Positions 197-64,000 of a DNA stretch of 64,000 nt are shown in pieces. How positions within the stretch are numbered: position 1 is the stretch's first letter; each line of letters opens with the position of its first letter. Source of the DNA: Branchiostoma floridae (taxonomy: Eukaryota; Chordata; Leptocardii; Amphioxiformes; Branchiostomatidae); the NCBI RefSeq assembly GCF_000003815.2, contig NC_049979.1, forward strand, positions 7,730,217 through 7,794,216, given 5' to 3'. The position numbers were made by a program, and so were the translations under genes. The notes beneath the pieces are model-generated. The model did no database searches. It was not told the origin of the DNA and saw only the letters and a list, made by a program, of their open reading frames with translations.

Positions 197-3100
197 GTTG
201 GTCGACTCTTCTTCCTCTTTGTTTATTTGTTTGTTTGAACCTTTGTTTATTCATGAAAGCTCAAATCGGCCTGCAGGCCGCTTTTCATTGATTGAGGTCA
301 TGAGGGAAGAGGCAAGGGTCAGACAACGTATATACAGTTTACATCATTAAAAGTCCTAATGAGTCTTATAAGTCTATAGACACAATTTTGCATACATGGT
401 ACAAGATACATAATAACGAGAGACATAATTTGAGTCCATTTGAGGCAACCACCTTCAACATTCTGAAGATTCTATCGCCTTTAGTTTTGTGGAGCATTCT
501 AAAAAGGGTGGTTATGTCTGATAGTGTCAGAGATATTTTAGGCATATTTGAATCATGAAGATGTCCAAGGTGTGATTTCACGTACAGCCAGTGTTGAAGA
601 TAACCCAGCATTCAAATTTCATACAATGAAATCAACTTGGCAACATGTATAGGATATGATATTGAAAAACTTTTCGTCTTACTCTTTTCTAATGGCACCC
701 ATTTGTAAATTGGTATTTCACTGCCAAGGTCTTAAGTATCAGTTCAGTTCAGGTCATCCTCATACGAGGTGCCATTAACAATGTCTAACCATGCATTTCT
801 ATCAAGTATGCTTACCTTTATAATTGGGTTACATTATGGTTTAGGAATATCATAATTCAAAATTAACACAACTGATTCACGATTTTACAGATGAATCGCT
901 CCCTGAGCTTTCGATGGAGCTGGATGGCCCAAGGCGCGACGCCCTGTTTGAGAAAGGCGTGCAGTACCAGAACCGTGGGCGTCTGGAGTACGCCCTGAAG
1001 TGTTACCTGGGGTGTCTGAGGGATCTGGACGAGACAGAAGGATTCAGCAAGTTACCTCAGTGTTTACATCAGGTGTGTGGGTCAGGGGGCAATGTTGTAA
1101 GGTGTAGAGGTAAGCTGCAGGGGTCAGAGGGCAATGTTGTAAGGGATAGAGGTAAGCCTCAGGGGTCAGAGGGCATGGGGCAATGTTGTAAGGGATAGAG
1201 GTAAGCTACAGGGGTCAGGGGAAAAGGATGGCCCTTCTTGTGCAATTTCTTGTGGCCCTGCAGCTTTAACTTAGCAGTGTGCCAGTGTCACTTTAAAACA
1301 GTCCCTGAGGCATTGGCCTGCCTGTAGTGTGGTGCTATATTTTACTGTAGCATCTGCCCAATTCTTGCCCAAGGTATACTATGATCTATGCTGCTCAGTC
1401 TTTTGCATCTGCATCTATTGCAATAATGGGTTCAGAGCCTAAATTGCTTGGGGTGTACATGCAAATGGTGAGATGTATAATCCAAATGGCCAAGCAGCAT
1501 AGGGGTGTCAATTTTGTGGTCTTGATGAAACTACCTTGACTTAATATTTGCTTAGTGTATCCTATACAAATGTGACCCCACTAAACACTGATACAGATTC
1601 ATACTGATGAAAGAAAGTCATTATCACTGAAACGTGGAATCAGGGGGTTGGAAGTTTGCAGTACAGCAAAATGTTTGCAGTCCTCACAAGGTATGTAGGA
1701 ATGGATAAAAATCATGGCATACATTGGACTATGGTACATATCCTTGTAATAGTACATTGCTTTTATGCAAGACTGACCAACTTCGATTGTTTTCTCTTAT
1801 GCTTTTCCTAAGTATTTCTGCTCTGTGTGTGGGATTTAACTGGCCTGGATACCATCCGATTTCTACCGGGGCTCCTTACACTTGCTACCTTAAAAAATAC
1901 TTACAAGTTGTTTATTTTTTTAGGGTAGCGAGTGTAAGGAGCCCCAGTAGAAATTGGATGGTACCCAGGCTAGGATTTACCACTGCACAGGGAAATATTA
2001 CATCATACCTCAGTCATCTTGAGAGCTCTTGTAAATTATCCTTTACCCTTGAACTTTACCAACTAGGTTGTGGTTTCTCTACCTTATTAGCTTAAAATCC
2101 CTTCTGGATATAGGTAATGTAATGTAGACTTGTGTAAATGATGCTGGAAGCCTCCATAGTCTTCAAACTGAGGATGGGTGAAGGTGTAAATGATACAGTT
2201 CATGTTTCATCTGTTGTTCATTTCTGATGTGATTTCAGATAGCCGACACCTTCTACAGGAAGGAAGAATGTATCCTTTCACTGTAACTGATAATGTTCAT
2301 ACCGGGTACTTAGCATTCAGTACCGTATCATATCTCTGAAACAGTACAAGGTTGGCGCTATAAGTTAAACCCCTATATTCTGATACCCGTGTGTTCTGAT
2401 GCACCTTAACCCCAAACTAACTAACAGTGGCAGGGAGTTGAACGTTACTAAGAGTACAGATCCTAGTGTGATACAATCCTCACATAATATATTCTCTTTA
2501 ATTCCAAAAAATCACTTAGGTCAGTGCTAAGAGATGTCACCTAATGTAGCCAAGATCTGATGACAAAATTATTGAAAAGAATGTCGCCCAAACATGACCT
2601 CCTTGACCTGATGTGCAGATGACAAGGCCGTGCAGTTTATCCAGGCAGAGAAGATGTACTATGAGAACGCCCTCATCGATACCACCGAGCTGCAGAAAGC
2701 TCTCAGTATGTTATATACTGTTTTCAAGCTGTTTAGTGCCTTGATTTGTGTTGTTATGTTAAAGTTCTCGATGAACAGGTATCAACAGGTGTCATTTGAG
2801 AGACTTCCTAAAATCACAGGACAATCTTGAATCCCGTCATTGCTTTCTTACCATATCAGGTCACAGAGTACTTAACAGTACATAACAGTATTCAGGAATG
2901 ATGTTGATAATAACAGTCTACACCATGATGTTCTTGAAAATTATAAAAAATGTGCCTTCATGTAGTTATTTTTATTTTGTGTCTGTCATCTTTCTTTCTT
3001 TCTTTTCCCGAAGATGTCTCCCTTCTTTTGCTGTCACCTTTTCCAACCTGTCATAAGTTCTGTTCTCTTGGGTGTGTAATGCTGTCTGATGCAGTTTGCC

Positions 3101-40200: not shown

Positions 40201-43200
40201 GGGATCTTACAATAGAATCCACGTATCTGCTACCTGCTCCCGTATGGCCTATTTGAAGGCGGGTGTTTTCACCTATCTGGAAATGACAAAGAAATATACA
40301 GTCTACTAAAAGAAAGAAAGAAAAAAAGCAATCTTCACATACACAAGTTCATATTCATATAACTATATATATTCATCCAAGTGTGTTGTCATGACTACGT
40401 GGGTAGGTAGGTAGGTTGTCAGGAAACAACCCTTTGAATTTGGAGAGAGCACATGTGGTACGGGACATGCGTGGTTCACATCTCCATGGTATTTATCCCT
40501 ACACAGTAACGATTTAGCGTGTTAACAAACAGACTAACGAGCTTCTAAACGGCAGTGGACAGGAGAATAGCGAAAAGTGACGGACGGGAAGGAAACCTGT
40601 AATTTTGTAGCACTCTGTTGTCCCCCCGGGGTAGCGAGCAGCTGCGCCTCGGGCGGATAGAGATGTCAGGCCGAAGGGCGGCCTGCTGGGTCCCCTGCTG
40701 CCGACTGGGCTTTGAACTAAGGTTCCTACAGAACAAAACACCGTGGTTTTTGAATGTCATTTTTTTTCTCCAGAAATATATGGAGTGAAACCTATCCCTT
40801 ATTATAACGTTATCACTCCATCTTTGGCGGTCGTACGAGGGACAGGATTGTCTCCGGGTATCACACATTACATAACAGTGCCCCAAAGAAGCAGTTCAAA
40901 CACTTACTGAAAACGGAAGGAAAACGATCACAAAATCGTTCTCACCGAGGAGAAATAGATTTTGGATGGTTGTACCGGTAAAACAAGTTTTAATGTGGGA
41001 CTTCTCATCATATTTACCCTGAAAGTCCTGCAAGGGGAATAGCCGACTTGCTGTATTATATAAAGTCACCATTCGGTCGGCTGACGCTGTTCTTAATTTC
41101 TGGGTCTCCCCATTTCCACCTGGCCTGGACAACATAAACAAACCGTGCACCATGGAGACAGGAAGATCCCCGCTGCCCCAGGTTATGATGAGTACAGTCT
41201 GCATGTAATATTGAGGTGAAGCCCAGGACATCATCCACAGGACCGGACAGACTAGAGGTCAACCTGGCGACCGTCCTCTGACGTGTGAGGTCAGGTCGGC
41301 AGCACGGCGAGAAGAACATTTCTGCGGTTCGAAATGACCGTTTGATCGCTCGTGAAATTCAATAAATATCTGCCAGTGGCCAGTAACTGTTCTGGTCAAA
41401 TACTTTCTCCTATTTATAACTAATACGTGAAGAGAAAGCACTGATTTTAGTAGATTATTTCGTTTTGACTTGGAATTGATATTGCTAGACATGGTATACG
41501 ATCGAGGGGCCGATCGGTCGGTTATTATATTGTTCCATGTGAAAGTGTTGTCTTTGAACTTGATCCATCAGAATGTTTTTGTAGCCAAAAATATTTTGTA
41601 CAAATGATATTGAAAAATGAAGCACAAAATAAACCAGTCTTAAACGGCTTTCATTAAAATACAGGCAATTTCATTGCAACAGTTAGAGATTTTAACCACC
41701 ATCTGTGGAATATTGCTTCCTCACCGCGATGTAGCTGCTCATGTAAAAGCAGAATCTCTACAACTTTAGATGTGTTTAATATGCAGTTCTGTCTTGGGGA
41801 TATTCTATTTCCTCTATTTAAAAGATGAAAATACTATTGTTGATGTTTCGCTGATGGCATCGCCAAAATTATTTGCCCCATTTTCGGTGACGGGAGCAAT
41901 TTCATCACCAGCATTTTCTGCCGCTTGTAGTCGTAGATGTGGGCACCATGAAATTCTAGTATACGCCATAGGCTACATCATTGATTAAAAAAGTACGGTA
42001 GGGAAGGCAGCCAATAAAACCACCCGGATATGTATCCTGCTGTATTGCATGTCATGTGGCTGACTGACACACATTCCTGAGCTTTATCAATCGTTCAAAA
42101 GGTCACCGTGCAGCAGTGCGAAAATAATTACTTGTGCAATCGGACAAGATGGGTTCTTCACGGTTGATTTTATACTCATAAAGACTATTTTACTCGGATA
42201 GACATTGACATAACTAAATGTAGCACAGCATACTTTCTCGTGACAACTTTGGTAGTGATTGGTGCAATGTTATTTTCTATTCTGCATTACACTCTCTCCC
42301 AACCTTAGCTGTACAAAAAAAAAGAAGAAAAAAAAACAGCAACGTTTTGCTTTATCTTTCCTTTTATGCTGCTTTCCTGCACTTGAAGAATATTCTGTGT
42401 TCTCCCCGTTGTTTTCCCAATAACATTGCGGATCTTGTTGTTCGTGAGGGTACTCCACAGTAACGGTACAACGAAAAGTATATGTGGAATTACTTTTCTA
42501 TCATAAACCCTGTTGCGTTATAATAGCACTAGTACTAATCTTCATATAGATTTCTTTGTATTCTACCGTTAGACAGTAACTAAGTACTATTCCCCCTCCC
42601 CCCACAGAACCATCTTCACGTCGTACCAGCTGGAGGAGCTGGAGAAGGCGTTTAACGAGGCTCACTACCCTGACGTGTACGCGCGGGAGATGCTAGCCAT
42701 GAAGACAGACCTACCTGAGGACAGAATACAGGTAACACAGACACTGTTGGCATCTCAACCACTTATTTCTGGGCTTTTTTCCATGCGTCAATTCCTTTAC
42801 TTGTGTTTATTCGATTTCCTGTCTTTGACATCTACTTTTTGTAGTTTCGTATATATGCATGGTCAACAAAATTAAAGCAACGAATATCCTCTTTTCCCGA
42901 CCAGCGTCTGTTAGGACGAGATAATATTCTAGTATTAAAATATTGAGCTAAACTATATTACTTGCGCGTTTATTCGATTAGTTTTTGTGTGCATTTTTTT
43001 CTGTCAAAAAATCTGGAGGTGTCCCCAGATGCCGTCCTGCTTTACTGTTCATTTCTGGCCTCATCCTCTTCCGCAACCCACCGTTTTCCTACTAGTGACA
43101 AAAATTTAACCTCTTTCAATTCCTGAAATCATGCTTTGGGTCAGTTTTAGTTTTACTGTCCTATTCCTTATTTGTTTGTTTGTCTGCTTTGTTTGTCTAC

Positions 43201-46200: not shown

Positions 46201-49200
46201 AATTGCTTGCTTCTCTGCGCGGATACAATAGCTCTGCCGGACGGTAATTCCGCTAGAGCGGCGGGCCAAAGTTTCGCCGGGTTGTGAGCGAGCAGGGTGC
46301 AGCAATGATACAAACGTTGTATCATATCACCGCAATGTTCTACACTACAGGGATGGAGAACAATTTGTATCCGTACTAGAAATATTAATTTTTCCACTTT
46401 TAAAACAAGAGAAAGTCCAGTTTACTTTGTGGCATTAAGGAGTGATGGCACATTTAGTAGTTTTAAAAGAAATGACAGAAAGAATAAAACATGCTAATCG
46501 ATAAAAATGTGCGTTATCGCGGATTTGACACAAACGGATGATGGATCGGCGGGTGTCCGCCTCCTGAATCCGAGGAGTCACGGGACGTTTTGTGGCACTT
46601 AAGAAGGACATGGACGACCTGGCTTGGTCATGCGAAACGGATGAAGAAAAGGGCGCTTAAACGCCGATGCCTAACTGTCCAGGAGAGGGCCGACCTTCTA
46701 AGGCTCATGTGTCCGCAGCAGTTACCCACAACTTTTCCCTCACGCAGCACCCTAACACTCCAGTCACTTACGTATGCAGATCAACTTTTTTCTTTACATT
46801 GTTGAACAACTCCGGTCGCAAGGATACTCAAGGGCAATTTGGTCGAGATCTTGGCGCATTTGCCGACGACAATCGCGCGCACTTTCAGGTCGTTCCTGGA
46901 ATTCACTCAGACAGCCCGGCGCCCTGATCGCTATCCGGCTGATTTCTGGGATCTGGAGGCTTTGATCTTGCGGAATGGGAGTTGCCGTGGCGGCGGTAAA
47001 TGGCGCGGCCAGCCCGAGCAGGCGGCATGAAAGCCCGGCACAGCCCCACCGCCATCTCACGGCCCCGATCTCAACCTCACCCAGCCGAGGTAATTTGTCA
47101 AACCTCTGTATAATTGACAAAATGCACTCCATTATAAACACGGGACCCACTTCGTACCGTCCGAGGGAGCTTTTCTGCGCGTTTGCGGGATTATCTTAAG
47201 TAGAAAGCTCCCATCAAACTGCTCTTCGACTCACACACCGAAGCGGGCCGGGCTCTGCGTGAAAAACTATCAGCTTAGCCCATCAGCCAATCAGCCAGGC
47301 TCTAGTACCGAATGGGCTGATTTGGAACTTGTTTGGCTACTTTAACTCCAACTTGAGAATAAAGCTGTGCGCAGAAGCAGTATTTCTTCTCAGTCATTTC
47401 CAACGAAACACCATACGAAGTTGAGAGGACATTTTACAACTGTATCTTGGAAGTACAGTAGATTTTATGTGGAGTGTTTTTGATACCTCTCTGAGGATGG
47501 CAATGTGCCTCAACACGTTGTGCAAAAGAACGATCCAACAGAACCGCTCACATGGGATCTGTCCTTGGTGCTGAATTGGTTCTGCTGCTACTGTGACTAT
47601 GGAAAATTTAAAAAAAAACGTTCCCTTCGTGACAAACAGTGATTTGAAATGCTTCCAAGCTGCGTTTTCATGATGCATCGTTGCCTTCTGTACACATCTA
47701 TAATCATATCTGTTCATTTTGATTCAGTTCGATCGAATGACATTTCATATCTCTATATGTGCATCACTTCTCTTCTCATTTCTGTAGGACCAACTGCAGC
47801 TTATATATTGCACTTCAAAGTGTACAAAAATGGATATATATATTGACCTGTCTTGTTACAAAACATAAAGAAGCTTTGGATGTACCGTTTTGGGTAGTCT
47901 GTACAGGCTTGCCTTGACATTTCTCGGGCCTGAATAGAGTATTCATCAGTACTGACAAAGCTTGTTATGTTAAGCCTACGAACGCTGTTGGGGACATTCT
48001 GGTATGATTGACCATGGCAGTAGTTTGGAGTGCTAATTGTTACTGCAGAAAAGGACATATGTGTTTCCTGATGAACAGGTCGGTACATTGTGTGAATGCT
48101 ACTGCTGGTCAGGTAACTGGGGTCTGACTGCCCATTCCAACAGAGAGAAACAAAGGTAGGTGTCGCCCGCGAACGGAAACAGAATCCCGAACGGTTTCCA
48201 TCGGAAGCTGCATGCTGGTTTGTGACAGGAGACCCCTAACCCTCCCTCCCTTCGCCTGCCTCCCCTGCCCTCCCCAGGTCTGGTTCCAAAACCGGCGCGC
48301 GAAGTGGCGGAAGAAGGAGAAGACTTGGGGCCGCAGCAGCGTGATGGCGGAGTACGGACTGTACGGGGCGATGGTCCGACACTCGCTGCCGCTCCCTGAG
48401 TCCATCCTGAGGTCCGCCAAGGACGGGATCATGGAGTCCTGTGCGCCGTGGCTGCTTGGTATGTACCAAATCCTTCGACCTTCCACCTCCCTAGCCATGA
48501 TCACAACGTCAAACCTATGACTTTTCACCTCCCCTCCACTCAACAAAAATAGTCGACCTGTGGTCTCCATCTGAACATGGCTCTACATTATTACAATAGG
48601 CAGTATTTTAGGACAATTAGATTTCAACTTGCTTGGAGAGCACAATATCTGTCACGTTACATCTTAACATCATTCTGACATGTCCATCCTTGATCTCTGA
48701 TGTTGCGCGGAGCACTGAGAGACGCGGTGGCCTTGCTATTTCTCATTGGACTCATTGTCTAATTGACACACATTGCCTACACATCACAGTTAAACACATC
48801 CAAACCGTGCGTTTCTTCAGTTTCATTATGATACATCAATATACTAGGTGGTATCTCACTGCACTTGCGTCAAGTTTGCGTCACTACGGGGTTCGTTCAC
48901 TGCGTCACTATTTTGTTATTTTTTTCAGATTTTTAAAAAATAATTCAGATATTGTGTAATACGTACGAGTAAAAGTATGACTTGACGACAAAATACTAGT
49001 TCACAGAAAGTAAGAAAATTCGTTCTTTATCTCTGAAATTCGTTGAGTATCTTTCGAACCCCGCAGTGACACAAGCATGACGCAAGTGCAGTGAGATACC
49101 ATCTTATGCAATGATACCTAATGCATGCTTCTTAGTCTTACCTTTGATATGGAAGGTTAGCGACTACAAAACTTAAGTTTCGTTAATAACAACATCGAAA

Positions 49201-52030: not shown

Positions 52031-54331
52031 CTTGGATCAATGTGCATAGTGTGTTTTTGTTTATCTTACTTACGATATACATACAAGAAAACTGAAATAA
52101 GCAAGGAAGGTTGGAGGCTTAAGTGCAATTGCTGATATATATGATTTGAATAAACAATCCAGCATATTCAGTATTCACCATGTCAACATTGTGGTTGTAG
52201 ACAGCAGGAGGGTGTGAAAGGGCTAGCCTCTCTGCCATTGCAGGGTAATTTTACTAACTACAGTGAAGTACAGCCATGCTTAAAAATACAGACACATTTA
52301 CTTAGCAGAAGCTGGAATTATATTCACAGGTCACCTGAGGTGTTGGAAACATCCACACAGTTAAATGGTGGAAAATAATAAGACAAACAAATCTTGCTGC
52401 TTGATTTTGGTTTAGGCCACAGCAAGTAAATTCTATGGATGACATCCTCTGCAGACTTAAAAAATAATGCGATAGGGTGAAAAAAAAGCAAGATGGGTAA
52501 AAAAATACAAGATGGGTAAATTTTAAAAATAGAACCCATAAACGTCGTAACAATAATAGAAGTGACAAAACATGGTAGCATAGACTACAAATCATTCATT
52601 CCTGAATTCAAGAAGTGAACTATAGTGTAGTAAAAGTGACACTAGACTGGTATCACTTACCAAGTTGGCAACTGCACTCATGACTCATGATGCCACTTTT
52701 ACAACTATCCAACTATAACTTCACTTCAATAACTACAGTCACTGCTACCTCGCTAGTGTCATTTCTACAAGTACAATCAGTACACACAACACATTTTTCC
52801 CATTTTGATACTTTCTTGTCACGTTGACCATCTCCGAAGATGAAAAAAAAATCTTTTTTTTTTCTGAAATCAGGCGAAAATTAATCATAAGTCATCCATA
52901 AAATTTACTTGTTGTGGCCTTACATACATTCATAGAATTAGACACAAATCAGATTAGCATCAATTTCTTTGAAATCTATAAAGATAACATTTACCAACTG
53001 GGGAATCTAATGGTTCAAAATCGGAAATCGTTCCGGGTATGAAAAGATTAAGTGTCTGATCTCAGACCAAAATGCAGCATGATGCATTTTCGGTGAAATG
53101 CAGTCTTGCTACTATGGCTCTCGTTTTCAGCCAAGCCGAGAAACAATGGATGTTGTTTGGAACGTTTAACTGTTTCCAAAATCATATCAAGTTGCTTGAA
53201 TAACTACTTTTTGGTGTACTGTGTACAATCATACAATATAGACACAAGTACTGTATACATAATTTTGACATTCTACTTGCTAAGGCAAATCACTGCATCA
53301 TTTCTGCATCGCTGTCATACAGACTTAGTGCTTCATGCAGATTTCATAAAGACAATGTTTTCAGAATGACAAAGAAAGGTCTCCTTGTGTGTGAACGTTG
53401 ATGACTGCACATCAGTTGGTGCTCCTTGTAGTAAGAACATGTTGGTTTTAACTTATCAGCAATTATAGGATAAAATAGATTCAAATTATGGACGGATTGC
53501 AGAAATAAGAATTTCTAATGCTTATCTCATATTTTCATATCAAGCCCTCAGGCACAAACTCCCCCTTGTGGTTTTTCACATAACAGCAGGTTCCTCTGAA
53601 GGCTTTTAGTACATTTGTATCAGACTTTGTAAAATTTATTAGATTTATAAAGTTTGTAAGATTTTAGAAATACTACTTTGTACAAGCATTTCATTTGCCT
53701 TTTCTTTCCCTTATCTGTAAAATATTTCACCATAGCTAGCATTTACATTGGCTCTTTGTAAAAGTTTCAAACTTGACACATTACAGAAACAATAGGTATT
53801 TGATGCAGCCACTTTCTACATACATGTATTGCAAAAATACATCATCAAAAGCCAGGTAATAGCCTAACTTTTAACTTAACTTTCTACACTTTGGTACACA
53901 TAGTTGTTAATTGTTTGTGATGTTACAACATATCCCTTTGGTCTTGATCGTAGAGACTTTAATAAACCACACAGGTTAACTCAGGTTGCTCCAGCAACTA
54001 AATTGTAATTTCCACAGTTTGTGCTGATATTCTAAGGAAAATAAATGACAGACTTTGATACAGTTGTTCTATCGTACACAATAGCTTCCAAAAGATACAG
54101 CAGCACTTACTTAATGTAATGCCTTTTGAAAGTCAAAATGTATACATGCATTTGGAAGCTGTTGCAAAGTTGAATAATGGTATAAGTGCATGTTATAACA
54201 GGAACTGTTAATATTGACAATGTAAAGACATCATAGTTCAGAGAGAAGAATTCAGGAATCTTCCTTTTTGAGCTCACACCCAGCAACTCTACTATACAAT
54301 TGTAAAATTTAGAGATGGGTCAAAACCATTA
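52031..54331. other. Convergent intergenic region and Spata7 3' UTR
   Basis: AT-rich. A weak inverted repeat (TAGTAAAAGTGACACTAG and partner CTAGTGTCATTTCTA) at 52627-52770 may be a MITE. A minus-strand AATAAA lies at 53635-53640. Otherwise nothing is recognised. Confidence 0.5.
53635..53640 (-). terminator. Spata7: Candidate polyadenylation signal of Spata7
   Basis: The only clear AATAAA on the minus strand in the 700 bp after the stop. The downstream element is weak. Confidence 0.3.
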
Positions 54332-54781
54332 TCAGGACATAGATGCACTCAAACTCTTCTCAGATGTGGATGTGGAGCTCAGAGTAGGTGAGCTGGTACT
54401 GTCTCTCCTCTCCTCCTTCCCATCATCCTCATCATCTGACTCTTTCCTGTCTTCATCATCTGACAGACTAAGAGGAGACCCAACAGGGGCGTGTCTGTCA
54501 TCTTCAGTATGTCCATTCTCTGTACGTGCTTCTGAAATGTCTTTGGGGATAGTTTCTGTATCATCCAAGCCATCCCCCGTGGCTTGTTTATTTAGAATGT
54601 TTTCATATTCCCTGTTGACGTCCTCTGGCCCAAACGTGTCACTCCCCATCGTAGACGGCTTGTCCTCTAGCATGTCCTCATCAGGCCTGGGGCGGAGAGT
54701 GTAGCGGGTGTCTGGGGCCTTGGAATCATCAGCGATGCCCAAATCTTCTCGAAGGATGTCGATCATTTGCCGCATCCGGGT
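54332..54781 (-). CDS. Spata7: Spata7 terminal exon 12, acidic tail
   Basis: Acceptor CTTTCCTAG. It encodes TRMRQMIDILREDLGI, then a long acidic Ser/Asp/Glu-rich tail (SDDEDRKESDDEDDGKEERR) ending SASMS and a stop at 54332-54334. Confidence 0.92.
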   Translation of the reverse strand, partial: TRMRQMIDILREDLGIADDSKAPDTRYTLRPRPDEDMLEDKPSTMGSDTFGPEDVNREYENILNKQATGDGLDDTETIPKDISEARTENGHTEDDRHAPVGSPLSLSDDEDRKESDDEDDGKEERRDSTSSPTLSSTSTSEKSLSASMS

Positions 54782-57700
54782 CTAGGAAAGTGAAAAAACT
54801 GTATAGAATTCATGGCAAAGAGATAGCAAAATTTCGTAAAACAAACAAGTTTAACCATGTCAGCTGTTACATTTTGCAAATCTGAATGTAGATTATCTTA
54901 GAATTTTTTAATATGATCTTTAGAAATATCAATAAATGTGAACGTTTTTTGCAGCTTTTTGGGCCTTGTCTAATCAAAATGTTGAATTTCTATCCAGACA
55001 CGTACAAACACAATCGCTACTTGATTACCTCATTCAACTCTCCATCCCTCTTCTGGACATGACTGTCAAACACTTGCAGCAGGACCCTGGATTGGAATGA
55101 TGTTGCGTGGACGAAATACAAATATGTTTCAGTCAGTCTTTGTCCTTGTCTTGCTTTCATAGCAGACATTAGAATATACCCATACTTACTTCGGGTCAAT
55201 AGATATCTACCTACAATTTGGAACAAAATGAAGAATATAGCAACCTTGACAACTCCAGTAAAATTCAACTGCCTGCCATGTAAATAAGTCTTTCTCACTT
55301 GTTGGTAAATATGCCCCTAGCCAGGATGTCGTTTGTCACATCTGTCACAAACTCCAGGTACTTCAGCTCCTCCTCCCTAGGGAAAACAGAAAAATTTTAT
55401 AACAGATGAAAAAAAGGATGACCTACTAAAGCCAATGGTTTTAGCCCCAAATCCATACATTCATGACAAGAACAACACTTTTCTTGAAAGATGCAGGTTA
55501 GACATATATAGTGCAAGTCCTGATATGGCAGTCTACAAAGAGGTTGGTAAGTAGTGACTACCCTGTGGCAGAACTGAAATGAAAATCTATAAATTGCTAT
55601 CTCAGCTACTGGTGGACAGACAGAATATACTATGTAACATTACAAATCACAAAAAACTGATTAAATATGTGCAATAGAAAGACTTACTCTGCCTCTATCT
55701 GTTTCATAGTCTGAGACTTGGTCCTATTCTTAGTGCTGTAAAAAAGGTGAACAAAGCAAAATAAATCAGAAACAAGGACAGGATTATTCAGTGGAATAGT
55801 GCACAACTTGTGAACACTGTGGATATATGTTTCATGGTACTATTCATATATGTGAAATTTTAATACAACTTAGCCTTGAGATACAAACTGCACAAGGACA
55901 GTATTCATGTATGCAAATTGCAAATGGACATCATCACCACCATAACAAAAAAATTCATAATGGCAACTGCAGGGACAAGTTGAGTTTCTCAAGTTATTAC
56001 TGAGCTTTTTATACACCAGACCTTGTGGTTTCAGCCTGTTAAGAACTGCCACGCTATCAGTTACCTTGTAAATCCTTTGATAGAGGTGTTACCATACATG
56101 TAGGTCTAGGACAGGTCTGCAAGTGTCTCCCCACCCACCTGTACATGGACCTGTTAGTGTCAGACATCCTCCTCTCAGCTGGCTGGGGTGCAGCACTCCA
56201 GGAGTCCTCCTTCACTGTTAGCTTCTCCATTCTCCTGGAGGAATGGAGTAAGTCATTATACCATCAACCAGACAGCCTCTTGCATTCAGCTTCCATTTTA
56301 ACAAACAGTAATTTTTTATTATTGTAGGCAAAAATTCACCAATTCACAAGTCAGTTGTGGTCTAGCTAGGGTGAGCCCGCTGGACAGAGCCGCATGGAAG
56401 CACAGTGTCAAAACTACCCTACTGCTGCCTACCCATGTGTCAGGGACCCCAGCAGCAGCATAATCAAGTACAGGATACTACTACTACTACCACTACTACT
56501 ACTACTTCTATACTACTACTACTATTACTACTACTTCTACTTCCACTACTTCTACTTGTAAGTTCCTATCCTGAAGCAGAAGGTACAAATTGTAGTCTTT
56601 CTGTTAAAGATCTACTGTCTATTTAGCTAATAATCATGTAAAAACAATAAACCAACAGATTCTGGTCAAATGATAGATCTATGGTTTTATTGTTTATTGT
56701 TGTTGTTTATTGTTTTATTAACTCCTTTAGTTGTCACAGTTACATGCAACAGCTACTCTTCCAGGAGTAACAAAATTACACAGAAAACATGGACACTGGG
56801 CATAACATACACAGCATATAACAATTGGAGATACTAAATGGCAGTAGGTCCCATTTACTGAAAAGTTCGCTGGGATTTACTTTTGCGGTAGCGGGAAAAT
56901 GAATATTTCACGGTGGTTTTAAGTTTGCAGTAGCGCCATCATCTGTAGTCTCATACTATAATGGAAAAATTTTTGCAGTGGTTTTAAGTTTGTGGTGAAG
57001 TGGCCACCGCAAAAACCGCGAACATAAAACCACCACAAAAATTTCTGCATTTACAGTAGCTGCCACATACTTGGCCTGCTGCTCCACCCATCTGGCATGG
57101 TCAGCATCCTTCTCTATGTCCAGAGGAGGCACACGGCTCTCCTCCTCCTGCCTACTCCTCCTCCGTGGGGCAGGCTGTGGCGGGACATCCGTGTAGCTCA
57201 TCTCACTCATGTTCAGGTCACTCGCTACGCTTTGTCTCCTTTAGGAAGGAAAATAAAGACGTGTGTTGGCAGATATTGAAGATTTCTTAGGAAAATGCAG
57301 AGTAAATATAAAGCTTTGCTTCTAGAAGGTTAAGTTTAAGTTTCAAAATAGGCTGTCATCTGTTTATGAAGGTTAGACATCCAGGTAAACAATATTCAGA
57401 TACAATTCAATCTCTACAACTAGATAACAAATTTCATTCTAGTGACGCTGAAAAATAGTGATGGATGTCACTCAAAACGTCCGGAAGTAAATCTCCCAAT
57501 GTAATCCAGTTGTAGAGATTGAATTGTATCTGAAGGCTGTCATCTGGACATCTCTACTCACCCATCATTATCTGCAGGTTTTGGAGCCTTTTTCCTGCGA
57601 GGTGGGTTGTAGCACTTGGACTGAGACAGCCGAGACTGGACTCCTGTCCGGTTCAGGGTCCTGGGGGTGAACGGTTTGTCCGGACTGCGGAACTTGTGTG

Positions 57701-60700
57701 CTCGCGTGTTCAGGATGTCGCCGTCCGGCGTGTTGCGGGGCAGCTGGATGACTTTTGATTGGTCCATGTTTGTTCTCTGCGTGGCCATGGGGACGCTGCT
57801 TGTACGACTCCGTGCACTCCTGACGCTGTAAGCCGACCTGGGTCGGGCGGGGGGTGGGGAGGCCACCTCCTGGGCAATGGCTGTGGATGTCTCCAGGTCA
57901 TCAGGGTACTGGGGAAGCCACAGAAGTTGGTATTAGCTAGTGAAGGCATGCAGTATGTAGAATATGAAGACAGAATCAGATCAATCTTCCCCCTCCTCTT
58001 ATATAAGATATCAACAACAACAAAAACTTGTGCAGATGCTTGCATCTATGCCACACTGAATCTTTTTTTTTCAAGATTGCTGAGACAATCGGTAGGTGTC
58101 ACTCCACTGTCATGGTGGGTATATCATATAAAGTTCCTTCCTCAAGGGCACAATGTTGGGGCATGATGAGTCTCAAACCCAAGACCAATGCTCTAATCAT
58201 TGACCAATGCCACCTTCAAGACAATAAAGCTCCATATGTCTTGTAAACATATAGTGAACTTCAGAAAGCCGTAAGAACTACTGTAGATGCAGAAATTTTT
58301 GTGGTAGTTTTATGTTTGCGGTTTTTGTGTTGCAAATTTACCACAAAAACTTAAAACCATCGCAATCATTTTTCCATGGCAGTAAGAGACGACAGTGTAT
58401 GGTGCTACCACAAACTTAAACCCACCGCAGCAGTCTTTTTTCGCGCTACCGCAAAATTAAATCCCCACGAACTTTAAATGCATTATTTTACAGTATACAT
58501 TCCCATGGCTGTCTATTTTTCCTCAATCTCCTCTTTTTACCCGAGGCTGTGCAGACCGAGGTCTCCTGGGCCGAGGCTGGGGAGGAATGTTAGACGGGAC
58601 GATGTTGGGGTTGCGGTAGTGGCTGGGAGAACGATGCTTGTCCTCCAGGATATTTTCCAGAAGGTCAAGATCACTTGCAGACAGATCCTAGTAAATAAGG
58701 TAAGAGCCATCACCTTAAACCCAGAGACACCTTAAACCCAATGGAAATTCCATTACTCTAACTACATGTACTAATTTTATATTCACCAGATGTACCAATA
58801 TATGAGATAGTCTTCATAGCACCAGTCTTGATCAGTAGGCAAAACAAGTTTGGTTTTACATTCTTCATGGGTGTGCTAATCAGGCATACCTGTTCTGGGT
58901 GCTGGGCCTTCATGGGTGTGTTAGTCAGGTGCACCCTTACCTGTACTGGGTGCTGGGCCTTCATGGGTGTGTTAGTCAGGGGTACCCTTACCTGTTCAGG
59001 GTGCTGGGCCTTCATGGGTGTGTTAGTCAAGTGTACCCTTACCAGGTGTTCTGGGTGCTGGGCCTTCATGAGTGTGTTAGTCAGGTGTACCCTTACCTGT
59101 TCTGGGCCTTCATGGGTATGTTAGTCAGGTGTACCCTTACCTGTTCTGGGTGCTGGGCCTTCATGGGTGAGTTAGTCAGGTGTACCCTTACCTGTTCTGG
59201 GTGCTGGGCCTTCATGGGTGAGTTAGTCAGGGGTACCCATACCTGTTCTGGGTGCTGGGCCTTCATGGGTGTGTTAGTCAGGGGTACCCATACCTGTTCT
59301 GGGTGCTGGGCCTTCATGGGTGTGTAAGTCAGGTGTACCCTTACCTGTTCAGGGTGCTGGGCCTTCATGGGTGTGTTAGTCAGGTGTACCCTTACCTGTT
59401 CTGGGTGCTGGGCCTTCATGGGTGTGTAAGTCAGGTGTACCCTTACCTGTTCAGGGTGCTGGGCCTTCATGGGTGTGCTAGTGAGGTGTAACCCTTACCT
59501 GTTCCGGGTGCTGTGCCTTCATGGGTGTGTTAGTTAGGTAACCCATACCTGTTCTGGGTGCTGGGCCTTCATGGGTGTGTTGGGTCGTGAGCTCATCCTG
59601 GAGGCACTGCGGGCAGACTTCAGCTCCTTCTGGAACTTCTTCATCTCCTTCTCCAGCATCAGGCGCCTTTGCTGGTCCCGATCTGAGTACAGAGCAGTTT
59701 GACACATTACTGACATGTTACAGGGCTCGAAATACTTTTTTCTGTCTACCTGCTAACTTTTGAAATCACCTGCACCAGAGAAATGTTACCTGCACCATTC
59801 AAATATACCCTAAAAGTGATTAAAAGAACCTTTTGAAGATACTCTATACATCTGTTTACTAACAAAGAAGGAAGGAATACTGATTTGCATAGAAACTATC
59901 TAAAAAGTGCACTAACCTGCATATGCAGGTGGTATTTTGAGCCCTGTACAGTTATCATAACAAATCTGGTGCAAGGTATGGACAAACTCTGCGCAAATCC
60001 TTAAAGCTTACTAGTAGTCTGATTTTCAAGGACTATTCTTCAATTACATTTTTCCTTACAAAATATATATGGATCCACCAGCCTTGTTTAACTTAAATAA
60101 AGACGCAAATCCAAAATCAAACCTGATCTTGTATATTTCAAACAGGTATAGACATTTCAAACATTTCAGTAGGTTTTGATTTAAGGTTTAAATAAACCCT
60201 ATATCAAAACTCATGTCTCACAATGTAAATCATAGTGTCTTACTGTTTTAGATTGTGATTGTTACAGAAGGCATAAGACTTACATTTGACACTTTTCACC
60301 ATGGAGGCAGGTACTCTATTGTCAATGGCAGCTGAAATAGAAAATTGCTTAGTCAGATTATCAAATATTTCATGGAAAATTGCAAACTCTATCTTTGAAA
60401 ATGAAAATACTACAGTAGACAACTATAAAGGGTATACAAAGAAATACATTTTCCGTGTCTTGGGACCGTGTCTTGGGAACAGCACTGTAAAATACAGTTG
60501 ACTGTAACTATTTTTTGATGATTGGCAAACAGGTAGGAGCAATGTTGCAAATGGGTGATTCTCTCACGTTTGGCAGTAGACAGTTTCTTGTAGTGAACAC
60601 TCAGATGGTCCTGGATCATGTACTGCTCTGTGATCTTGTTGGTTGAAGGAGCAAAGGCTATAAACATAAACAAAACACACAAGTCAAAACCAGACTTCCT

Positions 60701-62083
60701 CAGAAGTTAAACCAAGTATTTACAAAGCCAGCAGGGCATTGTTCATACAAGTCCCTTTTCTTTATCATCCGAGCTGTTGACGTCTTTGTGATGTGTATAA
60801 CTACAACCAAACATGCCTCTGTTGGCAGCTACTGTAAACTAATGGCATACTCAATTATTCATGAAGGGCACTTTGTAAATAATTGCTCTTTTAACAACTG
60901 GAAACAGAAACAATTTTATGTCATATCTGTCAATTCAACTATGCAAAGCTATGGAGATCAGGCAATATGATGTTACAGATTGTCAGACATGACAGATGAA
61001 ACACAAATAGAGTGATACTATGATTCATGAATATGATGACACCGGCAAATGCCAAAGTGCATACATGTAGTAGTGAATCATAGTTTAATGGTATTGGATC
61101 CTAAATATATAATACAAAAGACTGAAACCATAAATAAAAGCCTGTGGGTAATTTTATCTTTTTTTTTGTCAAGTGTATAACAACACAGTAAAGTGCAAAC
61201 ATCATTCAGTTCAAACAAAATACTATGTTATGCATGCATTTTTTTCTTTTATTCTAGTCAGTGAAAGAGTCCAGAGACTAAAGTAAAACACAGAACTGTT
61301 GAAGTGACTCTGACATTGGCAGGTGCAAGTGAGCTGTGATGCCTGAAGTGCGCAATATACTAGTACTAGTAAGTAGATATAGTTGCCATGTTTTTCTACC
61401 ATTTTGTGGATAAAACAATGGAACTCCTTCACTTAGACATATCAAATGTATATTAACCTTTTCCAGGCAGGGTGTTTATCTAGTACACAGTATAAGACTG
61501 CTAATACCAAGAAAATTGAGGAAATACTAGTAAATGTATACTCCAAAAATCTTGGTACAATGCTTACCATATCTATCCAGTTTTTCAACTACATTGTTCT
61601 AGTTTTACACCAGGCAGTGAGAAGAGTGCCAAGGTGGATGGGTGTACTTCATGTAAGACTGATCAACAACATGGCAGCAAATCAAATTTCTAGTGAGCAG
61701 CATATATTACACACTAATATGAGATTGGTCTCTAAGATTCGACTTTCACTAGTTTCAGCTGTGGCATGAGAAGAATGACAAAAACTGAAATTATTAAATA
61801 GAGGAAAACGCCTTCTCTGTTTAAGCATGGATGTATGAAGTTGGTTGTTAAGGAATAGCCAATCAAGCTGAGCCACACAGAGCCACACTAGAAAGAAAGC
61901 TAATGTTCTATACTAGAAGCAATGATTGGTTGAAAGCAGGGTGACAGTCAGCTGTGTTCTACAGGCCACACAATTCAGCACGAGAGGAGTTAGGGCATGA
62001 CGGGATCTAGTCTACGTTACAAGCCAGTCTTCATGCTTACGACTGCTTTTCAGGACAAGGTGACCCTTGAAAGGCGATGCCAT
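54332..62083 (-). CDS. Spata7: Spermatogenesis-associated protein 7 (Spata7), 12 exons
   Basis: Minus-strand exons 62083-62041, 60657-60568, 60331-60284, 59682-59549, 58687-58541, 57908-57562, 57238-57071, 56234-56139, 55735-55688, 55376-55299, 55086-55029 and 54781-54332 total 1707 nt, all in phase, giving 568 residues (human about 600). Family landmarks: FKGHL near the start, QDHLSVHYKKL (human NHMAVHYNKI), DNRVPASMVKSVKY with DQQRR following, KPFTPRTL and CYNPPRRKK, then EEELKYLEFVTDVTNDIL (human EEELLYLSFIEDVTDEIL) and the LREDLGI helix, followed by an acidic Ser-rich tail. SPATA7 is a ciliary protein of the photoreceptor connecting cilium that works with RPGRIP1; human loss causes Leber congenital amaurosis 3. 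The gene is intact and is convergent with Vsx. Intron 4 carries an array made from exon 4's own end. Confidence 0.93.
55029..55086 (-). CDS. Spata7: Spata7 exon 11
   Basis: Acceptor CAATCCAG, donor TGAG|GTAATC. It encodes VLLQVFDSHVQKRDGELNE, corresponding to human FLERLFERHIKQNKHLEEE. Confidence 0.9.
55299..55376 (-). CDS. Spata7: Spata7 exon 10, most conserved helix
   Basis: Acceptor TTCCCTAG, donor ACAA|GTGAGA. It encodes EEEELKYLEFVTDVTNDILA and RGIFTN, aligned by eye with human DEEELLYLSFIEDVTDEILK. Confidence 0.92.
55688..55735 (-). CDS. Spata7: Spata7 exon 9 (48 nt)
   Basis: Acceptor TTTTTACAG, donor CAGA|GTAAGT. It encodes TKNRTKSQTMKQIEA and leads into the EEEL helix. Confidence 0.85.
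56139..56234 (-). CDS. Spata7: Spata7 exon 8
   Basis: Acceptor TTCCTCCAG, donor TACAG|GTGGGT. It encodes RMEKLTVKEDSWSAAPQPAE and RRMSDTNRSMY. Confidence 0.85.
56477..56560. repeat. TAC/CTA trinucleotide repeat
   Basis: Interrupted ACT/CTA run in Spata7 intron 7. The open frames across it are repeat artefacts. Confidence 0.93.
56853..57060. mobile_element. MITE, family 4 copy A
   Basis: Contains GTTTTAAGTTTGCAGTAGCG, TTTGCGGTAGCGGG and CACCGCAAAAACCGCGAACA; ends ATTTACTGAAAAGTTCGC and TTTCTGCATTTACAGTAG. It lies in Spata7 intron 7. Copy B (58278-58496) is in the opposite orientation. Confidence 0.8.
57071..57238 (-). CDS. Spata7: Spata7 exon 7
   Basis: Acceptor CTTCCTAAAG, donor CAA|GTATGT. 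It encodes RQSVASDLNMSEMSYTDVPP, a basic RRRSR patch and EKDADHARWVEQQA. A MITE begins 11 bp past the donor. Confidence 0.85.
57397..57532. repeat. Perfect 25-bp inverted repeat
   Basis: 57397-57421 and 57508-57532 are exact reverse complements (core ACAATTCAATCTCTACAACT), separated by 86 bp, in Spata7 intron 6. The perfect arms suggest recent origin. Confidence 0.9.
57562..57908 (-). CDS. Spata7: Spata7 exon 6, conserved PFTPRTL core
   Basis: Acceptor CTTCCCCAG, donor GATGG|GTGAGT. Large exon of 347 nt: Pro/Ser/Arg-rich start, IQLPRNTPDGDILNTRAHKF (human VISKAPSGDLL region), KPFTPRTL, CYNPPRRKKAPKP. Confidence 0.92.
58278..58496. mobile_element. MITE, family 4 copy B
   Basis: Contains GTGGTAGTTTTATGTTTGCG, CTACCACAAACTTAAACCCA and GCGCTACCGCAAAATTAAAT. 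It is the reverse-complement arrangement of copy A, ends 44 bp from exon 5, and lies in Spata7 intron 5. Confidence 0.8.
58541..58687 (-). CDS. Spata7: Spata7 exon 5
   Basis: Acceptor TTACTAG, donor CGG|GTAAAA. It encodes DLSASDLDLLENILEDKHRS, then PSNIPPQPRPRRPRSAQPR. In phase 0 at both ends, matching exon 4 spliced from its first donor. Confidence 0.87.
58864..59567 (-). repeat. 51-bp tandem array derived from a Spata7 exon-intron boundary
   Basis: Fourteen units (mostly 51 bp, a few 44-54), read on the minus strand as AACACACCCATGAAGGCCCA, GCACCCAGAACAG, then GTAAGGGTACACCTGACT. The first 11 codons repeat exon 4's end (NTPMKAQHPEQ), followed by a copied 5' splice site. Each unit also has CTGACTAAC, which looks like a branch point. 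Most of it is open in frame on both strands because 51 is a multiple of three. Confidence 0.95.
59549..59682 (-). CDS. Spata7: Spata7 exon 4, coiled-coil; source of the tandem array
   Basis: Acceptor TGTACTCAG, donor CAG|GTATGG. It encodes RDQQRRLMLEKEMKKFQKEL, a heptad-like charged helix, then KSARSASRMSSRP and NTPMKAQHPEQ. The last 11 codons plus the donor and following bases are the template of the repeat at 58864-59567. Confidence 0.88.
59721..59946. mobile_element. hAT-type MITE in Spata7 intron 3
   Basis: Ends CAGGGCTCGAAATAC and GTATTTTGAGCCCTG (one mismatch as complements). Interior copies of ACCTGC on opposite strands. It lies 38 bp upstream of exon 4. Confidence 0.75.
60284..60331 (-). 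CDS. Spata7: Spata7 exon 3 (48 nt)
   Basis: Acceptor CTATTTCAG, donor AAAT|GTAAGT. It encodes AIDNRVPASMVKSVK, joining to give the family's SVKY-DQQRR. Confidence 0.88.
60568..60657 (-). CDS. Spata7: Spata7 exon 2
   Basis: Acceptor TTTATAG, donor AAAC|GTGAGA. It encodes PFAPSTNKITEQYMIQDHLS and VHYKKLSTAK, matching the human KNHMAVHYNKILSAK region. Confidence 0.9.
60658..62040 (-). other. Spata7 intron 1
   Basis: 1383 bp of AT-rich sequence. No repeat family or exon is recognised. Confidence 0.65.
62041..62083 (-). CDS. Spata7: Spata7 exon 1
   Basis: ATG context GGTGTCATGG. It encodes MASPFKGHLVLKSS; FKGHL is conserved in vertebrate SPATA7. Donor AGTC|GTAAGC, phase 1. The frame stays open upstream, so an earlier start is possible. 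Confidence 0.8.
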
Positions 62084-62411
62084 GACACCTGGGGGGACCG
62101 GGCTCCCTGGGGGGACAGCAACCAGCAGACATGGTGAAATTGGCACAGTTAGCACAACAACATGTCAGCACACAACATGTCAGCACGCAACAACAAGCCA
62201 ATCTAGATATTGGAAAATGTTGTCAACAATCACAACTGACTGAATTCACTTCAAAAGTCTTTCTGTACATCACCCTGGTACTGCAAACCAAATTATATTT
62301 TGCATTCTGTGAAAGAAAATTGATGTTACATATTCTATGTTCAAACTCACTTCATAGCAAGCAAGCAAACGTTCCCGGGTAGCCCAATACCTTAGCGCAA
62401 TAACGCAAAAC
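62084..62411 (-). other. Spata7 5' flank
   Basis: About 330 bp between the first codon and the dyad repeat block. CAACATGTCAGCACA is locally repeated at 62159-62190. No TATA box or other promoter element can be assigned. Confidence 0.4.
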
Positions 62412-63776
62412 TACCGAAGTCACGGGTTCCTCTCTCAGCACTCGGTGTCTAGTGCGGAAGGGGCCTTCCGCACTAGAAGTCTAGTGCCGACGTTACGTCC
62501 GCACTAGGTGTCCAGTGGTGAGTCGACTTCAGCACTGAAAACCCCGAATCATCACTAGAAACCGAGTGCTGAGACTACCTTCCGCACTAGAAAACGAGTG
62601 ACGACAAATATTCCGCACTAGAAAACGAGTGACGACAAATATTCCGCACAGGAAAACCAGTGACGACAAATATTCCGCACTTGAAACTGAGTGCTGACAG
62701 CCAGCCCCCGTTACGTTATTTACAGTTCCGGGCAGTTAAAGGCACACATATACAAATGTAATACATAAAAGAAGTGTAACAAATCGTTCACCTTGAGCCT
62801 GAGAAAGCTGCGTATGGGAGGAAATATCCGTGTCGGGTTTTCAAAGAACAGTACATATCAATTATTCTTTCTTATTTAGACACTTTTTTTTCGTGACCAA
62901 AGTAGAACTGTCTAAACTGTCTGTAGCCGCCACGAATCAACAAATGATGCATGCGAACGATTGATTGAAAGTAGTCTGCAACTCAAACACGACAAAGGGA
63001 GCTGCAATTTATTGGTATTTTATCTTCGTGAAATTTAGAAAAAGGGAACGAAGCTGACACACTGCTGACATGAGGTCATCATATACATAACACCATATAC
63101 ATGTAGGATGTAGCGTATGATACACACATGCTGTAAGTGTTTCGAGTTCCGACAGAGACAAGACTAGTGAGGGCAAAATTGATTTAAAATACTGAGTAAG
63201 TGACCGTCCGAAGGTGAGTAGGCGCTGCTGCATGTCAACTATGTTTTTGAGTAACAATTTGGACGCGAGCACTGGAAACCCAGTGCTGACGGTCTTAAGA
63301 TGATAGTAGCACTCGGCTTCTAGTGCCGAAGTGGTCTTAGCACTCGGCCTCTAGTGCCGAAAAGTCACCGAGCACTAGAAATCCCAGTGCGGAACCCGTG
63401 ACTTAGGTAGATCGGCACTCGGTTATCCAGTGCTCAAAGACCTCCGCACTGGGTGACCAGTGCTGAACGACCTTTGAACCACCCTTCCGCACTAGAAACC
63501 GAGTGCTGAGCGGAGATCAGCACTAGAAACCGAGTGCTGGGCGGAGTTCGGCACTAGAAACCGAGTGCTGGGCGGAGTTCGGCACTGGAAAACGAGTGCC
63601 GAGACAAGGTGTAGCTCTGGAATTCCAGTGCTGACGGGTCTTCAGCACTCGAACAAAGCCGTTCCGCACTGGAATTCCTGTGCGGAAGTTTCTTCCGTAC
63701 TGGGCCCCGAGTGCCGACGCCAGTTTCCCCACGAATTCCGCACTGGGCGCCCAGTGCGGAACCCGTGACTTCGGTA
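62412..63776. repeat. Dyad-array element with 19-bp terminal inverted repeats
   Basis: TACCGAAGTCACGGGTTCC at 62412-62430 and its exact complement at 63758-63776; a third, one-mismatch copy at 63391-63409. Between them are two blocks (62436-62700, 63265-63757), together about 25 copies of an 18-bp dyad GCACT-N8-AGTGC. Some are perfect palindromes, such as GCACTGGGCGCCCAGTGC at 63740. The 62700-63265 core is AT-rich and unique. No coding capacity. Confidence 0.85.
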
Positions 63777-64000
63777 TACTTGCCGCAATAACATAATTAA
63801 ACTTGTTAAAAAGACATTCACTTGATCAATTGAGATTATCAATAACGTCGGAATTAAAACCGAGGACATTAGCCAAGCATCAGACCTCACCCCCAAAAGG
63901 CCTTGCTGTTCAAGGAAGCTGCCAATGGTACAGTAGATTTGTCTAAAACGAAAACTGGCAAACCTAATGGATAGACTTTAAAGATTACACTTCAAATTTC

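What the first reader, a model, noticed from the sequence alone, without database searches (positions are those of the whole stretch)
58864..59682. Tandem array that multiplies a Spata7 exon end together with its splice donor
Seen: fourteen 51-bp units, each a copy of exon 4's last 11 codons (NTPMKAQHPEQ), its CAG|GTAAGG or CAG|GTATGG donor, and following intron bases. So about 14 tandem candidate 5' splice sites follow the true exon, and each unit also carries CTGACTAAC, a branch-point-like string. Inference: the cell may choose among many donors, or read several units as a 17-residue protein repeat. The first unit is out of step: reading past the first donor meets a stop (VWVT*), so only splicing at the first donor keeps the main frame. 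Copy number probably varies between individuals.
Basis: partly seen in the sequence, partly recalled or inferred. Interest (0 to 1): 0.78.

Follow-up and report, generated by a model that had tools for sequence, protein, structure and literature searches.

The report
Splice-donor minisatellite in amphioxus Spata7
A stretch holding the end of one gene exon together with its splice signal has been copied 13 more times into the following intron; this is an example of an oddity already named in amphioxus ("mirages"), and the same kind of array turns up at many other exons of this genome.

Summary
On the minus strand, exon 4 of a Spata7 gene (Pfam HSD3) ends at 59549 with CAG|GTATGG. Its last 33 bases plus about 18 intron bases recur 13 more times (to 58890), with a partial copy to about 58854. 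Corrections: 13 extra donors, not 14; 9 of 13 units are exactly 51 bp; CTGACTAAC is exact in 8 of 13.

All 13 later donors put the VWVT* stop into the mRNA. Ten of 13 pair better with U1 than the true donor. No good acceptor lies in the array.

Tandem repeats across exon-intron boundaries are known in amphioxus as "mirages" (PMC3087553, PMC3902484). This is a new member of that kind. A partial duplicate on contig C18 breaks inside the array and keeps 3 donors.

The addition is scale. Tandem triples of CAGGTAAG occur 1,596 times in the 513-Mb genome, against 11, 139 and 61 for three same-composition octamers. Six of six loci of a stricter pattern begin at a coding-looking exon end, five with homology support, two of these weak. 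Most likely first-donor splicing continues and the array is a tolerated by-product. No RNA data were available.

The parts
59549..59682 (-).
   Evidence: Open frame; Pfam HSD3 E 1.3e-5 for its ORF, just under the cut-off; the joined exon 4-exon 5 frame is open
59549..59581 (-). exonic part of the first repeat unit (last 33 bases of exon 4)
   Evidence: equals the unit consensus; identical to 2 of 13 later copies (U6, U13), one or two substitutions in the others, plus an indel in U9 and U10
59543..59551 (-). authentic donor CAG|GTATGG (inferred), U1 duplex -7.7 kcal/mol
   Evidence: only donor of 14 that keeps the frame
58890..59548 (-). 13 further units, each about 18 intron-type bases plus 33 exon-type bases ending in a donor
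58854..58889 (-). partial last unit (GTATGCCTGATTAGCACACCCATGAAG and a little more), then unique intron sequence
   Evidence: the exact end is by eye
58688..58853 (-). unique 166-base 3' part of intron 4, with the acceptor TTATTTACTAG
   Evidence: best-scoring AG of the 68 in the intron; weak, not significant similarity to the unit (10% of shuffles as high)
58541..58687 (-). Spata7 exon 5 (DLSASDLDLLENILEDKHR...)
   Evidence: open frame when joined to 59549; no similarity to the unit
1072..1225 (+). second donor-bearing array in the window, beginning at a different exon end (..KLPQCLHQ|GTGTGTG); three further AG|GTAAGC copies, about 42-bp units
   Evidence: gene perhaps consortin-like: Consortin_C at 15827-16174 E 1.8e-7, weak TPR_1 (E 0.012) in the exon before the array; link between the two exons inferred

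Best explanation
It is a 'mirage': a minisatellite made by tandem duplication of a segment that straddles a 5' splice site. Shown: the last 33 bases of exon 4 with the donor and about 18 intron bases recur 13 times inside intron 4, with point changes and four unit-length changes. Inferred: repeat slippage or unequal exchange made and still changes the array. The cell splices from the first donor (59549) to 58687, and the other 13 donors sit unused in the intron, or are used rarely and give stop-containing RNAs that are destroyed. The array is thus a by-product that the splicing machinery tolerates, and it is one of many such arrays in this genome.
For: Array anatomy. Only 1 of 14 donors keeps the frame; the other 13 all run into VWVT*. 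The exon-type part of the units shows no clear protection: 13 changes in 422 cells against 11 in 233 in the intron-type part (Fisher p 0.29); 5 synonymous and 8 non-synonymous, about 18% synonymous expected. No acceptor-like site in the array. A partial duplicate on C18 (six aligned blocks of 82-95% identity, 91-93% in the three longest) holds only 3 donors and breaks inside the array, so copy number and the site are labile. The unit next to the exon is the most diverged, as in published mirages whose edges escape homogenisation. The published class matches: PMC3087553 section 16 (read whole) reports tandem repeats over exon-intron boundaries in Adh3 and globin genes, AG/GT in many copies, and regular splicing; PMC3902484 section 16 (read whole) and a passage of section 17 report such repeats in PGBD5 and cite troponin C. 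At other arrays of this genome homology runs to the last codon before the first donor: alanine aminotransferase 1-36 of 36 residues, cytoplasmic dynein 4-49 of 49, axonemal-type dynein to 57 of 57, TMEM237 2-68 of 68.
Against: No transcript was seen; use of the first donor is inferred. By U1 pairing the first donor is weaker than 10 of 13 copies (-7.7 against -11.5 or -8.5), so a strength-only rule would predict use of the copies. I found no feature other than position that favours the first: predicted RNA structure does not separate it from the later donors. The association of unit similarity with nearness is weak (permutation p 0.06).
Confidence: 0.82

Rival explanations
1. The later donors are used at a real rate. 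Because every one puts VWVT* into the message, the array acts as a poison-exon-like brake on Spata7 output through nonsense-mediated decay, with strength set by copy number.
For: 10 of 13 copies pair better with U1 than the first donor; 13 of 13 give a premature stop; in 9 of 10 exon-end arrays examined, this one included, read-through stops within 22 codons.
Against: No RNA evidence. Stops within 22 codons are common in any intron. One array (C1:224036) reads through in frame for 87 codons. Published amphioxus mirages were reported not to disturb splicing (PMC3087553 section 16; PMC3902484 passage of section 17).
Confidence: 0.12
2. Units are sometimes spliced in as internal exons, giving Spata7 isoforms with 17-residue repeats.
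For: The 51-bp unit is 17 codons, and frames of 133 and 120 residues are open inside the array.
Against: Every AG of the intron other than the true acceptor scores below zero with a crude matrix, against 5.1 for the true one; the frame from exon 4 is closed by VWVT* and the 44-bp unit breaks the frame again; no clear sign of coding selection.
Confidence: 0.02
3. The array, or its length, is an assembly artefact.
For: Repeat arrays are often mis-sized; PMC3087553 (legend of Additional file 4, seen as a passage) notes an aberrantly assembled mirage in a genome draft.
Against: Eleven of 13 units are unique in sequence and only U3 and U5 are identical, so stuttering of one unit is unlikely; a second, shorter version exists on C18; many unrelated arrays of the same design exist.
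Confidence: 0.03

Closest known systems
Amphioxus 'mirages' (Adh3, Canestro et al. 2002, not held, known here only through citing papers; globins BflGb6 and BflGb9, PMC3087553; PGBD5, PMC3902484; troponin C, cited there)
   Same: Minisatellite-like tandem repeats that include an exon-intron boundary, lie next to the authentic exon and carry AG/GT signals in many units; published ones vary in copy number between haplotypes.
   Different: New gene (Spata7), 51-bp unit at a 5' splice site, 14 donors; 10 of 13 copies pair better with U1 than the authentic donor. Transcripts and population variation not tested here.
Intronic copies of exons with splice sites in amphioxus VCBP3 (PMC2632668, passages seen)
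   Same: Complete or partial exons, some with canonical splice sites, lie in introns and resemble adjacent coding exons.
   Different: The passage does not describe a many-copy tandem array of one donor.
Intron gain by tandem genomic duplication of AGGT (Rogers model; review PMC3443670, passages seen)
   Same: Tandem copies of an AG|GT-bearing segment place several splice signals in a row.
   Different: Here the intron has its own 166-base 3' part and acceptor, and exon 5 does not resemble the unit, so the array looks added to an existing intron, not the origin of it.

Membership tests
amphioxus mirages | tandem repeat unit spans an exon-intron boundary of a protein-coding gene | tested here: met
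   Pfam HSD3
amphioxus mirages | many units carry the AG/GT splice signal | tested here: met
   13 of 13 later units carry GGTA; 12 of 13 carry CAG before the GT
amphioxus mirages | regular splicing at the authentic site is undisturbed | not testable with these tools
   no RNA data; only the first donor keeps the frame
amphioxus mirages | copy number unstable between haplotypes | tested here: inconclusive
   3 donors in the C18 partial duplicate against 14 here; that is a duplicate on another contig, not a shown allele
amphioxus mirages | homogenised inside, diverged at the edges | tested here: inconclusive
   the first unit is the most diverged, but the last one is not, and similarity against distance has permutation p 0.06
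intron created by tandem duplication of AGGT | intron consists of duplicated exonic sequence, so the next exon continues the unit | tested here: not met
   exon 5 against the unit scores 14 with 52% of shuffles as high

The most novel reading that the evidence does not exclude
In this amphioxus genome the 5' splice site is itself a preferred seed of tandem arrays. Perhaps a hundred or more genes carry runs of their own donor, up to 64 donor-like sites in one array, and the spliceosome still uses the first one. If control octamers lie mostly in neutral DNA where arrays are tolerated (assumed, not tested), the excess at donors needs faster formation at donors, or active retention, not mere tolerance. 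The effect would be a genome-wide natural experiment on how splicing picks one donor from many near-identical ones.
Probability: 0.4. Interest if true: 0.75.

Novelty: new member of a known kind. Interest (0 to 1): 0.52.

Why it matters
Single mirages are reported for a few amphioxus genes in the papers seen or cited there. The whole-genome counts here suggest that such arrays are common, often start at coding exon ends, and place from 3 up to about 64 near-identical donors in a row in ordinary genes (by homology: aldehyde dehydrogenase, alanine aminotransferase, trypsin-like, myotubularin-like, dyneins, TMEM237, Spata7). That makes two questions testable with RNA-seq: does position or strength decide which 5' splice site is used, and why do tandem duplications favour splice donors in this lineage? 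Spata7 is a clean test because its first donor is weaker than 10 of 13 copies; in the nine other arrays scored the first donor was equal to or stronger than most copies.

Tried and rejected
Donor-masking hairpin (CAGGT pairing with ACCTG in the same unit): the first donor's accessibility (0.38) lies within the range of the copies (0.33-0.52), and the repeated consensus (0.39) is not unusual among shuffles (34% of 300 at or below it). In favour of some pairing: donors are less accessible than the region mean (0.55), and three of four changes to ACCTG raised the value to 0.51-0.61, while the fourth (ACCTA) did not (0.36). It does not separate first from later donors, so it was rejected as an explanation for first-donor use.

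Internal exons or recursive splicing at AACAG|GTAAGG: no polypyrimidine tract; all array AGs score below zero.

Bias to ciliary or germline genes: suggested by Spata7, TMEM237 and an axonemal-type dynein on C1, but the wider sample (aldehyde dehydrogenase, trypsin-like, alanine aminotransferase, myotubularin-like, VIT-domain gene) does not support it.

Acceptor arrays: clear cases were seen (31 copies and 9 copies in a dynein region), but the one acceptor octamer tested, TTCCACAG, gave 154 triples against 140 for its backwards control, so no excess at acceptors was shown.

Origin of the intron by the array: not supported.

Unbiased sampling of arrays: only 8 stretches of 5 kb could be had; 6 TRF rows with period 20 or more there, none with AGGT[AG]AG. 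Too small to measure how often arrays hold donors.

Phase: 5 of 10 exon-end arrays sit after phase-2 exons; too few to judge. The read-through and phase lines took the frame from array copies in some loci and were replaced; only the donor energies are used.

A further control octamer (AGGTCAAG) was asked for seven times and never answered.

Full report
OBSERVATION. The minus strand of 58300-60200 was read directly. Exon 4 of a Spata7 gene runs 59682-59549, ends CAC CCA GAA CAG, and is followed by GTATGG. Tandem Repeats Finder reports 58887-59581, period 51, 13.7 copies, 91% matches, score 1130. After the exon's own donor there are 13 more, in units of 50, 52, 51x6, 44, 54 and 51x3 bases, then a partial copy ending near 58854. 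The unit is 18 intron-type bases (GTAAGGGTACACCTGACT) plus 33 exon-type bases (AACACACCC...GAACAG).

GENE. Pfam HSD3 (Spermatogenesis-associated protein 7) matches the ORF of exon 4 (E 1.3e-5, 25.4 bits, just under the 27-bit cut-off), the ORF at 57561-57932 (E 3.7e-11), and two of three stop-masked minus-strand frames of the region 54001-63999 (E 2.2e-14 and 3e-9). The exon 5 ORF alone had no Pfam match. Exon 3 (KITEQYMIQDHLSVHYKKLSTAK, about 60.6 kb) and exon 5 (58687-58541) fit by phase as I read them.

WHAT THE 14 DONORS WOULD DO. Splicing 59549 to 58687 gives an open frame. Each of the other 13 donors carries VWVT* into the message. By RNA duplex energy with the U1 5' end (recalled sequence) the first donor scores -7.7; nine copies score -11.5 and one -8.5, two equal the first, one (58890) is weaker. 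In the nine other arrays scored the first donor is not outdone in this way: no later copy is stronger in seven, 1 of 4 in one and 23 of 63 in one. The true acceptor 58687 is the best of 68 AGs in the intron; AGs in the array all score below zero. Accessibility of the donors in predicted RNA structure does not separate the first from the rest. So position is the only sequence feature found that favours the first donor. This is inference: no RNA was available.

HOW THE ARRAY EVOLVED. Relative to the consensus there are 11 substitutions in 233 intron-type cells and 13 in 422 exon-type cells (Fisher p 0.29); 5 synonymous, 8 non-synonymous. There is no clear sign of coding selection. The unit next to the exon is the most diverged. 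A search of the window's own genome (513,431,437 bases, 431 contigs) found one other match, on contig C18. It lies at one end of a duplicate of about 10 kb: six alignment blocks run from window position 59439 to about 6.5 kb beyond the window's right end, with identities of 93.1, 91.2, 90.7, 95.1, 83.3 and 82.0% (short hits of the array to itself were left out of that listing). The duplicate breaks inside the array and keeps 3 donors with a 52-bp unit GTATGGGTTACACCTGACTAAC.... So copy number differs between the two copies, and the sequence has broken within the array. In C18 the 3 donors are all GTATGG, like the true donor here; 10 of the 13 later C1 copies have GTAAGG.

IS IT PART OF A KIND? 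Yes. PMC3087553 (passages; section 16 read whole) describes minisatellite-like tandem duplications of exon-intron boundaries in amphioxus globin genes, names earlier cases in Adh3 as 'mirages', reports haplotypes with 6 and 3 units, and says that the structures do not seem to interfere with regular splicing. PMC3902484 (passages; section 16 read whole) describes 60- and 108-bp repeats at exons of PGBD5 and cites troponin C. The founding paper (PMC117041) is not held. The array is therefore a new member of a known kind.

HOW COMMON. A whole-genome pattern search for three CAGGTAAG in a row (30-60 bases apart) gave 905 forward and 691 reverse matches, against 8 and 3 for the same octamer read backwards. 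Two more octamers of the same composition gave 64+75 (GAAGTGAC) and 32+29 (CAGTGAAG). The listing is capped; it reaches C15 and by eye holds 26 loci, 19 of them one dispersed repeat. Single-octamer counts in a held sample of 123,684 bases with this array masked were 3 for CAGGTAAG, 8 for GAATGGAC, 6 for GAAGTGAC and 4 for CAGTGAAG, so a commoner word does not seem to explain the excess; these counts are small. Matches overlap within one array, so they are not numbers of arrays. The listing is capped too; it reaches 29.24 of 35.3 Mb of C1 and by eye holds 11 loci. By anatomy 7 are donor arrays starting at an exon end (this one included), 1 is an acceptor array of a dynein region seen from the other strand (read by eye), and 3 belong to a dispersed 51-bp repeat.

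The stricter pattern ACAGGTAAGC in triplicate gave 12+35 matches against 0+0 for its control. They fall at six loci on six contigs with six unrelated units. Stretches upstream of all six were fetched: 6 of 6 arrays begin at the end of a coding-looking exon. Five have homology support: trypsin E 2.5e-8 and VIT 1.6e-9 and alanine aminotransferase 2, 2.9e-13, residues 1-36 of 36 are clear; aldehyde dehydrogenase (1e-4) and a myotubularin-associated domain (0.003) are below their curated cut-offs; one (L056) has none. A 61-residue query that ran on past the aldehyde dehydrogenase donor found nothing at E 1e-20. On C1, homology supports dynein exons (in one search only residues 1-41 of 62, so the exon end is not covered there), TMEM237 (5.3e-28) and a TPR exon. 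The exon at 1810617 has no support beyond its open frame, the exon behind the 31-copy acceptor array had no Pfam match, and Pfam found nothing in L040, where the dynein match comes from the structure library. Scaling 11 loci per 29 Mb, or six loci for one of sixteen flanking-base combinations, gives roughly 100-190 loci genome-wide. This is a rough estimate; the higher figure includes the dispersed family.

RESULTS AGAINST A BROADER CLAIM. The acceptor octamer TTCCACAG showed no excess (154 against 140). In 40 kb of systematically placed stretches no array held AGGT[AG]AG (0 of 6 rows). A fourth control octamer could not be run. The search tool says that counts of repeats are lower bounds. The excess at donors is therefore well supported for this octamer but its cause is open.

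LITERATURE. Ten searches were answered. By title and start of abstract none of the listings showed a genome-wide survey of mirages or a study of amphioxus Spata7; the one paper holding both words 'amphioxus' and 'spata7' (on C21ORF2 and NEK1) was not opened. Most subscription papers are not in the library, so this is weak evidence of absence.

VERDICT. A real, tidy example of a known but little-studied amphioxus oddity. The single locus is of moderate interest; its value lies in the weak first donor among stronger copies and in the evidence that such arrays are widespread.

Noticed in passing
window 1072-1225 (+): A second donor-bearing array (about 42 bp, 3 further GAG|GTAAGC copies) begins at another exon end (..KLPQCLHQ|GTGTGTG), perhaps of a consortin-like gene.
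   Followed up: partly
L036 and L037 (C1:219900-246499): A dynein heavy-chain region carries five donor arrays at different exon ends and acceptor arrays of 9 and 31 copies in front of other exons.
   Followed up: partly
L039 (C1:1834279-1836651): 64 donor-like sites in one 2.4-kb array after a TPR exon; L040 (C1:4497081-4499357) has 35 after a cytoplasmic dynein exon.
   Followed up: partly
L041, L042, L044: A dispersed repeat with arrays of a 51-bp unit in both orientations, the unit carrying donor-like and acceptor-like strings; looks like a mobile element with array ends.
   Followed up: no
L036 (C1:224036-224252): A 54-bp donor array at a dynein exon reads through in frame for 87 codons, so donor choice there could add 18-residue repeats to the protein.
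   Followed up: no
window 62404-63784: A 1.4-kb stretch with 31-bp arrays near both ends is absent from the C18 duplicate: probably an inserted element.
   Followed up: no
window 42573-42872 and 48128-48517 (+): A homeobox gene apparently split by an intron inside the homeodomain (E 2.4e-13 for the first part, 0.0037 for the second); downstream residues recall Vsx (recalled, not tested).
   Followed up: no
L048 (C8:5000001-5005000): Two 43-bp arrays of 52 and 21 copies with the string ACAGGTAAACAGG.
   Followed up: no
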